A stretch of 64,000 nucleotides of DNA from Pilaira anomala (lineage: Eukaryota; Mucoromycota; Mucoromycetes; Mucorales; Mucoraceae). The notes under the pieces are model-generated. The model did no database searches. It saw only the letters and a program-made list of their open reading frames with translations, and had not been told where the DNA came from. The position numbers and the translations under genes were made by a program. The stretch lies in contig JAIXMQ010000011.1 in assembly GCA_025716855.1 (NCBI GenBank), positions 372,001-436,000 on the forward strand, in the 5' to 3' direction. This document shows positions 5,232 to 7,278 of the stretch, one piece after another. Position 1 is the first letter of the stretch. The number at the start of each line of letters is the position of its first letter.

Positions 5232-6302
5232 ATGAATTTGATAAATTTACCAAACGAATTATTGCAAATCATAACCAACTATTTACCACAACAAAGTGTT
5301 TCTCGATTATGTCTAACCTGTACTCAGGGTTATCAACTCTTCTTACCAAAACTCTATCGACATATTGAGTTAGGCCATCGTACACAGACCAGACAGCTTG
5401 AACTAGGTTTAATACGAAACTCATTCCTGAAAGAAACCGTAAAAGAATATACTCAATCCTTGACACTCAATAGCCGTCAAGGAGGCAATAGTCATTGGTC
5501 CATCCTATCGCTCTTTGAACAGTTACCAAAAATAAAGCATTTACAATTTCGCGATTTCTTGACTCTCTCTGTAACTAAAGTCAATCAAGTCTTGAATATC
5601 TTGCCAAGGTTAGAAAAACTGGATTTTTCTTATTGCGACTTGACAACGAATCACTCAAAAGATGAACAGGAAGAAGAAGAACAAGGCACGAAGAAACAAA
5701 TGGTGTGCAACAACTTGGTTGAATTAAATTTAATTTGGACAGATTTCTCTGCCGATGCAATTCGGCAACTCGTTCTAATTACACCGAATCTAAACCGTGT
5801 CATCTTGGGCGCAAATCATAATCGACATAGATTAGCCAATGATGAATCACTTTTAATCTTAACAAATCACTGTCAAACCATCAAAGATTTATCAATTTCT
5901 TTACAGCAAGTGAAAGAGAGTTCTATCTGTCAACTGATTCGTTCCTATGGACCTCAATTAGAAACACTTTCCATACGATGTGAAGGAAACGAAACCATTC
6001 AGACCATATCACAGTATACGAAGCGGTTACAACAACTCACGATTCGATGTAACAATTCTGGGTATAATAACGTGATGAATATATTAGAACAGTGTCAATT
6101 CTTGACACATTTAGAGATGGTGAGTTGGCCCTTACAGGATGTGCCGAGTATCGTTTTAGATCAGATAAGGTGTCGACAAGATACCAGTGCTTCTTTTATT
6201 GCGGCTCCTACCTCTCTCTATATAGAAGGCATCAAAAGAACCGTCGCTTTAGATAGACAAGACTTACAAGAGATACGTAGACTCTGTCTTTATTCGCAAT
6301 GA
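5232..6302 (+). CDS. F-box / leucine-rich-repeat protein
   Basis: This is a 356-aa intronless protein with an N-terminal F-box-like motif (about residues 3-42: LPNELLQIITNYLPQQS, then SRLCLTC and a LPKLYRHIEL end). Degenerate leucine-rich repeats follow from about 90 to 300 (for example LPRLEKLDFSYCDL, LVELNLIWTDFS, CQTIKDLSIS, LETLSIRC, LQQLTIRC, LTHLEMVS). F-box proteins of this design are substrate adaptors of SCF ubiquitin ligases: the F-box binds Skp1 and the LRRs choose the substrate. The substrate cannot be inferred. A charged low-complexity insert (KDEQEEEEQG) sits between repeats near residue 140. The start codon follows an A-rich leader and is the first in-frame Met. Such genes are expanded in Mucoromycota, so no orthology is claimed. 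Confidence 0.85.
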   Translation: MNLINLPNELLQIITNYLPQQSVSRLCLTCTQGYQLFLPKLYRHIELGHRTQTRQLELGLIRNSFLKETVKEYTQSLTLNSRQGGNSHWSILSLFEQLPKIKHLQFRDFLTLSVTKVNQVLNILPRLEKLDFSYCDLTTNHSKDEQEEEEQGTKKQMVCNNLVELNLIWTDFSADAIRQLVLITPNLNRVILGANHNRHRLANDESLLILTNHCQTIKDLSISLQQVKESSICQLIRSYGPQLETLSIRCEGNETIQTISQYTKRLQQLTIRCNNSGYNNVMNILEQCQFLTHLEMVSWPLQDVPSIVLDQIRCRQDTSASFIAAPTSLYIEGIKRTVALDRQDLQEIRRLCLYSQ

Positions 6303-6513
6303 TATAATAAAATAATGATACCTTTTTTTTTTGCATTAATTTACTTTATATTGGTTTTTACCACTGCATGACAGTTGTTGACACGTGATCTAAATCACCT
6401 CTGTATTTGAGACAGTCACTTGTGTCACTTTACGAAAAAAAAAACAAAACGTAAAAAAAAAAAAATATGCTTCCAAAAGGTGTATCTCATTTATTTTTGT
6501 ATAAAGATATAGG

Positions 6514-7278
6514 ATGGTAAGTATATTTTATTACTTTTATAACATAGAATTTGATATTAATGCATAATATAATTTTAGTCTGTAAGTAACTTATATATAT
6601 ATACATATAAAAAAATAGAAGAAAAAAACAGTTGACGATTGTAAAAATATATAGTATTTTTTACCTCATTTAACTAACGGTTGGCAAGTTGATCAAGCCA
6701 TCTTGTCAGAAGAAGATCGTGTTGTTATTATTCGGTTTGGACACGATTGGGATCCCACCTGTATGCAAATGGATGAAGTTTTGTACAGTATTGCAGAGAA
6801 AGTAAAGAATTTTGCTTGTATTTACTTGGTAATAATAGTAATATATATAAAAAGAGGGTTTACAATAAACTAAAAATAAAATTATCTAGGTGGATATTAC
6901 AGAGGTTCCTGATTTTAACAAGGTAAGTGTATATTAATGTAATCAATAATAGGGAGTAAAAAAAAAAAAAGTATTTTAATGCAAGACGTTTTTTGTTAGA
7001 TGTACGAATTATATGATCCGTGTACAACCATGTTTTTCTTTCGTAATAAGCACATCATGGTGGATTTAGGTACTGGTAACAACAATAAGATCAATTGGGC
7101 TTTAGATGATAAACAAGAAATGATCGATTTAGTTGAAGTAAGTTGAAATCATAATAACCTGACAACAACAAAAACTAATTTTTTTTTTTTTTAACTGTAG
7201 ACGGTTTATCGTGGTGCAAGAAAAGGTAGAGGTTTAGTGGTGTCACTCAAAGATTATTCAACAAAATATCAGTATTAA
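6514..7278 (+). CDS. DIB1: U5 snRNP 15-kDa protein Dib1/Dim1 (TXNL4A family)
   Basis: This is a thioredoxin-fold core component of the U5 snRNP and the U4/U6.U5 tri-snRNP, needed for pre-mRNA splicing. I infer six exons: 6514-6516 (ATG only), 6579-6581 (TCT), 6655-6828, 6890-6922, 7000-7137 and 7201-7278, totalling 429 nt or 142 aa, the same length as human TXNL4A. Family blocks are nearly invariant: NGWQVDQAILSEEDRVVVIRFG, DWDPTCMQMDEVLYSIAEKVKNF, VDITEVPDFNKMYELYDP and DLGTGNNNKINWALDDKQE. The start is unusual. The ATG stands alone before a GTAAGT donor, and a 3-nt exon flanked by perfect splice sites restores the conserved Met-Ser-Tyr N-terminus. Skipping it would still leave an in-frame 141-aa protein. 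An upstream ATG at 6467 opens a short out-of-frame uORF if it is transcribed. Confidence 0.95.

What the first reader, a model, noticed from the sequence alone, without database searches (positions are those of the whole stretch)
6579..6581. A 3-nt microexon (one codon, TCT) in DIB1, directly after a start-codon-only exon
The conserved N-terminus of this family is Met-Ser-Tyr-(Phe/Met)-Leu-Pro-His-Leu. In the genome the Tyr-Phe-Leu-Pro-His part starts at 6655 after a 3' splice site. The only Met in a compatible place is an ATG at 6514 that is immediately followed by GTAAGT. Between them lies TTTTAG-TCT-GTAAGT, a codon for the missing Ser between a consensus acceptor and a consensus donor. Including it gives exactly 142 aa, the human length. 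Introns are 62 and 73 nt, in the local range. Exons this short are at the limit of what spliceosomes are known to define, and the gene itself encodes a spliceosome protein, so autoregulation by inclusion or skipping (142 versus 141 aa) is possible.
Basis: partly seen in the sequence, partly recalled or inferred. Interest (0 to 1): 0.82.

Follow-up and report, generated by a model that had tools for sequence, protein, structure and literature searches.

The report
One-codon exon in fungal splicing gene
In a mould's gene for a core splicing protein, the start codon and the next codon each appear to sit alone between introns, the second as an exon just three letters long; this is very probably real and easily missed by gene-finding software, but exons this small are already known in animals, plants and other fungi.

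Summary
ATG (6514-6516)|GTAAGT, TTTTAG|TCT (6579-6581)|GTAAGT and ATATAG|TAT (6655) are present; an in-frame TAG just before Tyr3 forces a splice. Of 61 stop-free 5' structures tried, two begin MSYF or MYF: with the 3-nt exon (best score), or skipping it, 4.6 bits worse. A gene finder trained on this genome chose both one-codon exons without homology, though it also makes tiny-exon artefacts. No Ser-coding 3-nt exon this strong arose in 20,000 shuffles or 30,979 noncoding 138-mers. Ser2 is in 110 of 120 listed homologs. Two Mucorales relatives have DIB1 annotated as a fusion of the upstream F-box gene onto exactly Tyr3; a third, Gongronella, is annotated with MSY. Likeliest mechanism: constitutive inclusion by stepwise removal of two short introns. 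The suggested autoregulation has no support. No RNA, and no relative's DNA, could be examined. Exons of 1-3 nt are known, so this is a new member of a known kind.

The parts
6514..6516 (+). coding exon 1: the start codon only (ATG), -3 base A, followed by donor GTAAGT (5' UTR part of this exon unknown)
   Evidence: donor score 10.9 bits, 90th percentile of 225 reference donors; chosen by self-trained model
6517..6578 (+). intron 1, 62 nt, GTAAGT...TTTTAG, branch-point-like TTAAT with A 18 nt from the end
   Evidence: (acceptor 6.6 bits, 52nd percentile)
6579..6581 (+). microexon TCT = Ser2
   Evidence: Ser2 in 110 of 120 listed homologs
6582..6654 (+). intron 2, 73 nt, GTAAGT...ATATAG, branch-point-like TTGAC with A 19 nt from the end
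   Evidence: (donor 6.2 bits, 22nd percentile; acceptor 5.0 bits, 32nd percentile)
6655..6828 (+). exon 3, starts at Tyr3 (YFLPHL...CIYL)
   Evidence: junction at the same residue in annotated Rhizopus microsporus and Cokeromyces recurvatus proteins
6829..6889 (+). intron 3, 61 nt, weak donor GTAATA
   Evidence: 16th percentile; the gene model preferred the donor at 6802, homology requires 6829
6890..6922 (+). exon 4, 33 nt (VDITEVPDFNK)
6923..6999 (+). intron 4, 77 nt
7000..7137 (+). exon 5
7138..7200 (+). intron 5, 63 nt
7201..7278 (+). exon 6 with stop codon

Best explanation
This is the DIB1 (TXNL4A/U5-15K) gene of a Mucorales fungus, the only match found in its genome, with six coding exons. 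The coding part of the first is one codon, ATG, and the second exon is one codon, TCT. Shown: the sequence, reading frame, site scores and absence of a better N-terminus among the structures tried. Inferred: the 3-nt exon is included constitutively, because introns this short are recognised as units (intron definition) and removed one after the other. Intron 1 has the stronger site pair and is probably removed first; that joins ATG to TCT and leaves GTAAGT intact as the donor of intron 2. A 3-nt exon can hardly hold the factors of both neighbouring splice sites at once, so the two introns would be spliced sequentially. The product is M-S-Y-F-L-P-H-L, 142 aa. The first Met would then be removed and Ser acetylated, as is general for Met-Ser N-termini (established knowledge, not tested).
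For: Of 61 stop-free 5' structures (any ATG in 6303-6654, at most two introns, site scores above -3), only two begin MSYF or MYF; MSYF is best (-8.9), the skip -13.5, the next -20.1. A gene model trained on 264 kb of this genome chose 6514-6516 and 6579-6581 without homology input; its site matrices exclude these two introns. Their splice scores lie within the range of 225 reference introns, and both introns have typical lengths, whereas one 138-nt intron would be unusual (10 of 225 reach 138 nt). Only one other Ser codon followed by GT or GC lies in 6303-6645 (6400, donor score -0.5), and none of the five ATGs there is followed by a Ser codon. Chance. Ser2 in 110 of 120 listed homologs, Ala in 2. 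Rhizopus microsporus P0172 and Cokeromyces recurvatus P0173 jump from the F-box gene straight to YFLPHL, and R. microsporus P0083 reads M-YFIPHL: an exon is placed to start at Tyr3 there, and the Ser was not found.
Against: No RNA, cDNA or protein evidence was available. No genomic DNA of a relative could be read, so conservation of AG-TCT-GT is untested. Gongronella butleri (Mucorales, as I recall) is annotated with MSYFLPHL after a 39-residue extension (P0007); from the protein I cannot tell whether its Met-Ser-Tyr codons are contiguous, which would mean the layout is not Mucorales-wide. The donor at 6582 is below the median (22nd percentile) with no G at -1. The gene model makes tiny-exon artefacts: besides the two DIB1 exons, 10 of 407 predicted exons are 12 nt or less, two of them of zero length, and it misplaced the end of exon 3 of this very gene. 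ATG-only first exons are rare: 1 of 68 multi-exon predictions, this one. Branch-point-like motifs are weak evidence (35% of random 70-mers have one, 124 of 225 introns; the undisputed intron 3 has none). A TATAAA starts 14 nt upstream of the ATG (6500); if it were a TATA box, transcription might start downstream of the ATG.
Confidence: 0.88

Rival explanations
1. The TCT site is a chance match; introns 1 and 2 are one 138-nt intron and DIB1 in this fungus is M-Y-F-L..., 141 aa.
For: It is the second-best model; R. microsporus P0083 is annotated M-YFIPHL; DIB1 tolerates many mutations in yeast (passage of PMC7876476).
Against: 4.6 bits worse; requires the donor to pass a nearer and stronger acceptor (6578, 6.6 versus 5.0 bits); only 10 of 225 introns are that long; chance of such a Ser site 1.5e-5 to 1.3e-3, 0 of 20,000 and 0 of 30,979; P0083 is the only one of the 120 listed homologs starting Met-Tyr.
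Confidence: 0.06
2. The 3-nt exon is a regulated cassette: inclusion or skipping (or retention) lets the DIB1 level feed back on its own mRNA.
For: Gene product is a U5 snRNP protein; weaker second donor; either intron retained gives a stop within 20 codons, so retention could switch the gene off.
Against: Skipping keeps the frame and changes one residue; poor splicing at low DIB1 would reduce DIB1 further (positive, not homeostatic, feedback). I did not look for regulatory elements, and there are no RNA data.
Confidence: 0.04
3. The true first exon lies elsewhere (transcription starts downstream of 6516 or upstream exons are used) and supplies a different N-terminus.
For: TATAAA at 6500, 14 nt upstream of the ATG.
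Against: Every other ATG between 6303 and 6654 gives a non-conserved N-terminus and scores at least 12 bits lower among the structures tried; the upstream same-strand F-box ORF ends at 6302, 211 nt before.
Confidence: 0.03

Closest known systems
Fusarium CYP621A single-nucleotide exon (PMC12940212; abstract and part 1 of 3 of the text read)
   Same: Fungal gene, ultra-small exon needed to restore a conserved motif, two short introns looking like one over-long intron (139 nt in F. graminearum, 138 nt here)
   Different: 1 nt and frame-breaking there, seen in 20 orthologs and confirmed by RNA reads from two species; here 3 nt, phase-preserving, without RNA data; P450 versus U5 snRNP protein
Arabidopsis APC11 and plant VPS55 1-nt exons (PMC4674806, PMC8831610; passages read)
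   Same: Ultra-small exons in conserved genes, missed by annotation; [quoted passage not shown] GTRAGT donors at VPS55
   Different: 1 nt, plants, experimentally confirmed, conserved in land plants
3-nt microexons of mouse Ncam, Drosophila troponin T and homothorax (PMC8042270 passages; PMC7392893 title and abstract start in a search listing)
   Same: One-codon exon
   Different: Animal; the troponin T and homothorax ones are alternatively spliced; I saw no mention of a start-codon-only exon before them
Trichoderma virens Xlr2 microexon switch (PMC11121469, abstract start in a search listing)
   Same: Microexon in a filamentous fungus
   Different: Inclusion there depends on glucose; no evidence of regulation here

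Membership tests
DIB1/DIM1 (TXNL4A, U5-15K) | Pfam PF02966 over the cut-off, full length | tested here: met
   230.8 bits against cut-off 27, profile 1-133 of 133; 303.5 bits to human U5-15K over 1-142 against about 107-109 bits to TXNL4B chains
DIB1/DIM1 (TXNL4A, U5-15K) | N-terminus Met-Ser-(Tyr/Phe) | tested here: met
   Only when TCT is included; 110 of 120 listed homologs have Ser2
Spliceosomal microexon | Very short internal exon between canonical GT-AG introns of normal length | tested here: met
   (sequence level only)
Spliceosomal microexon | Present in mature mRNA | not testable with these tools
   No RNA reads of this organism in the tools on hand
Spliceosomal microexon | Conserved in related genomes | tested here: inconclusive
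   Tyr3 junction shared with two annotated relatives and Ser missing from their models; Gongronella annotated with MSY; no genomic DNA of fungal relatives could be read
Regulated (cassette) microexon | Alternative inclusion | not testable with these tools
   No RNA data; site strengths and intron lengths argue for constitutive inclusion

The most novel reading that the evidence does not exclude
The Met|Ser|Tyr double-intron layout is an old feature of Mucorales DIB1, kept because translation of this essential splicing factor then depends on two successive splices around a 3-nt exon, a stringent self-test of the spliceosome that couples DIB1 output to splicing competence.
Probability: 0.06. Interest if true: 0.75.

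Novelty: new member of a known kind. Interest (0 to 1): 0.42.

Why it matters
If RNA confirms it, this would be a one-codon exon directly after a start-codon-only coding exon in a gene that is essential in yeast, and a clear case of why standard annotation fails at fungal gene starts. Two public Mucorales proteins appear to be F-box/DIB1 chimeras, which such a start would explain. It gives a very small natural substrate for asking how intron definition handles adjacent splice sites 3 nt apart. It is not a record: 1-nt exons are known.

Tried and rejected
Looked for DIB1 DNA of relatives: viral contigs twice (no relatives) and genome contigs (three loci in bacterial metagenome bins). I translated two of the three, L024 and L025: contiguous Met-Ser-Phe starts, presumably misbinned eukaryotes of undetermined origin; L026 matched residues 82-130 only and was not examined. 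A second protein search from R. microsporus P0083 listed 20 proteins not in the first list; I read 14 of the 20: 9 carry MSY (one after VIS), 1 MAY, 1 MFY (Umbelopsis isabellina), 1 MGST, 2 start at Met4; no further protein named as Mucorales was among the 20. First settings of the gene finder had too small an intron penalty and produced nonsense genes; it was re-weighted before and the unusable result is not counted. Exon 3 end: the model prefers donor 6802, which would delete nine conserved residues; rejected on homology. Considered and rejected: contiguous ATG-Ser codon upstream (none), GC donors, a Ser codon split into exon 3 (the in-frame TAG lets exon 3 start only at 6655), pseudogene (only DIB1 match found in the genome). 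Literature, judged by title and abstract start of the listed papers: microexon with Mucor (6 papers) and TXNL4A with microexon (2 papers) listed no Mucorales or TXNL4A microexon; Mucorales with splice site and branch point 0 papers; one unrelated paper; one search listed 20 of 2,387, none of which holds a microexon term. One paper search of ten was left unused.

Full report
Observation. The window sequence matches the finding base for base. The six exons 6514-6516, 6579-6581, 6655-6828, 6890-6922, 7000-7137 and 7201-7278 give a 429-nt CDS and a 142-aa protein that aligns end to end with human U5-15K and scores 230.8 bits with Pfam DIM1 (cut-off 27). It is the only DIM1-family match found in the 34.25-Mb genome; the two matched stretches are exons of this gene. 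Codon 6652-6654 is TAG in the Tyr3 frame, so exon 3 has to begin at 6655.

Is the TCT exon more than chance? A gene model was trained on the window plus 200 kb of contig C1 (coding statistics, donor and acceptor matrices, intron lengths; 85 genes, 322 introns, 227 well-flanked introns). An earlier setting gave nonsense and was discarded. The model uses no homology, and its reference introns require flanking exons of at least 30 nt, so introns 1 and 2 were not in the matrices. It chose 6514-6516 and 6579-6581 as exons. Against it: 10 of 407 predicted exons other than these two are also 12 nt or shorter, two of zero length, and it put the end of exon 3 at 6801 instead of 6828, so its vote alone is not proof.

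Scores. With the two DIB1 introns that were in the reference set removed (225 left), donor 6517 is at the 90th percentile of reference donors, donor 6582 at the 22nd, acceptor 6578 at the 52nd and acceptor 6654 at the 32nd. Of 61 stop-free ways, with at most two introns and site scores above -3, to get from any ATG in 6303-6654 to DIB1, the microexon model is best (-8.9), the skip model second (-13.5) and the third -20.1; only the first two begin MSYF or MYF. Lengths 62 and 73 are typical (166 of 225 introns are 55-80 nt), while 10 of 225 are at least 138 nt. Introns 1 and 2 have YTRAY-like sites 18 and 19 nt from their ends (intron 1 a second one at 24), where the median of such sites in the reference set is 19; but 35% of random 70-mers have one against 124 of 225 introns, and the undisputed intron 3 has none, so this is weak.

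Chance controls. YAG-(Ser codon)-GTAAGT: 17 plus 10 sites in 34.25 Mb, both strands, the DIB1 site included; the reversed-pattern controls gave 18 and 3, so most such sites are probably chance ones. Across 40 placements that expects about 1.5e-5. In 281,464 noncoding positions, AG-Ser-GT with both scores above zero occurred 9 times, 0.0013 expected in the interval. With site and length scores combined, 0 of 20,000 dinucleotide shuffles and 0 of 30,979 overlapping noncoding 138-mers contain a Ser 3-nt exon as good as the observed one (4 and 7 with a gain of at least 0); with any sense codon 14 and 12 are as good.

Homology. Of the 120 listed homologs (of 4175 found), 110 have Ser at position 2 (100 MSY, 6 MSF and 4 more beginning MSY), 2 have Ala, and 8 have another or no usable N-terminus: 4 start at Met4, 1 is a tagged construct, and 3 are fungal annotations, P0048, P0053 and P0083. 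A second search listed 20 further proteins, of which I read 14: 9 carry MSY, 1 MAY, 1 MFY (Umbelopsis isabellina P0131), 1 MGST (P0125), 2 start at Met4. P0083 (Rhizopus microsporus) reads M-YFIPHL, exactly the Ser-less join; it is a divergent 137-aa protein, differs from the DIB1 part of the other R. microsporus protein P0172, and may be a paralog. P0048 (Powellomyces hirtus) looks like a retained intron near Ser2; from the protein alone I infer an intron inside or beside the Ser2 codon. Rhizomucor pusillus P0053 has an unrelated N-terminus in place of MSYFLPHL. Against a Mucorales-wide layout, Gongronella butleri P0007 is annotated with MSYFLPHL after a 39-residue extension; whether its codons are contiguous cannot be told from the protein.

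Mucorales relatives. The upstream F-box ORF (5232-6302) hits 40 proteins, its own record included; all named ones are Mucorales genera as I recall the taxonomy. Two of the 40, R. microsporus P0172 (433 aa) and Cokeromyces recurvatus P0173 (447 aa), join that protein to DIB1: they match the window's F-box protein at 50 and 53% identity over 85 and 84% of it and carry a full DIM1 domain, while their F-box or LRR Pfam matches stay under the cut-offs. In both, the F-box part stops at WPVQE or WPLHD, where the window's F-box gene has a GTGCC after the Asp codon, and continues directly with YFLPHL (132 and 133 of 140 residues identical to the window protein). So the neighbourhood is conserved, an exon is placed to start at Tyr3 in both, and neither model holds Met-Ser. 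I read these records as annotation artefacts, because the F-box proteins of the window and of Mucor (P0147) continue with a shared tail. This supports a shared acceptor at Tyr3, but does not show the TCT microexon in those species.

How it works (inference). The introns are short, so each can be recognised across itself. Intron 1 has the stronger pair of sites; its removal joins ATG to TCT and leaves the GTAAGT of intron 2. The skip needs the first donor to pass a nearer and stronger acceptor. Retention of either intron gives a peptide of 17 or 19 residues and a stop. From general knowledge, Met-Ser starts lose Met and are acetylated on Ser, and Met-Tyr starts keep Met; after processing both forms would be 141 residues long and differ only in the first residue. 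That makes a strong function for skipping unlikely, and the preference for Ser or Ala at position 2 fits a demand for a small second residue. DIB1 is essential in yeast and thought to prevent premature spliceosome activation (PMC7876476, passages).

Known or new. Microexons of 3 nt are documented in animals (PMC8042270 passages) and 1-nt exons in plants (PMC4674806 and PMC8831610 passages) and Fusarium (PMC12940212, abstract and part 1 of 3 of the text); a regulated microexon is reported in Trichoderma (PMC11121469, listing only). My searches listed no paper that, by title or abstract start, reports a Mucorales or DIB1 microexon; several listings were capped, and the library holds open-licence papers only. 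I file this as a new member of a known kind.

Noticed in passing
window 5232-6302 and 6514-7278: F-box/LRR gene and DIB1 are same-strand neighbours 211 nt apart; in Rhizopus microsporus (P0172) and Cokeromyces recurvatus (P0173) they are annotated as one fused protein, probably an artefact of the hard-to-find DIB1 start.
   Followed up: partly
window 6802 and 6829: The donor of intron 3 required by homology (GTAATA, 16th percentile) has a stronger in-frame competitor 27 nt upstream (GTAAAG at 6802, 62nd percentile) that would delete nine conserved residues.
   Followed up: partly
window 6890-6922: Exon 4 of DIB1 is itself only 33 nt long.
   Followed up: no
P0048, P0125 (database proteins): Odd annotated N-termini of DIB1 in Powellomyces hirtus (MSYVST...HHSRYFLPHL) and an Auriculariales fungus (MGSTFLPHL) suggest that introns near codons 1-3 of DIB1 may occur in other fungal lineages too.
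   Followed up: no
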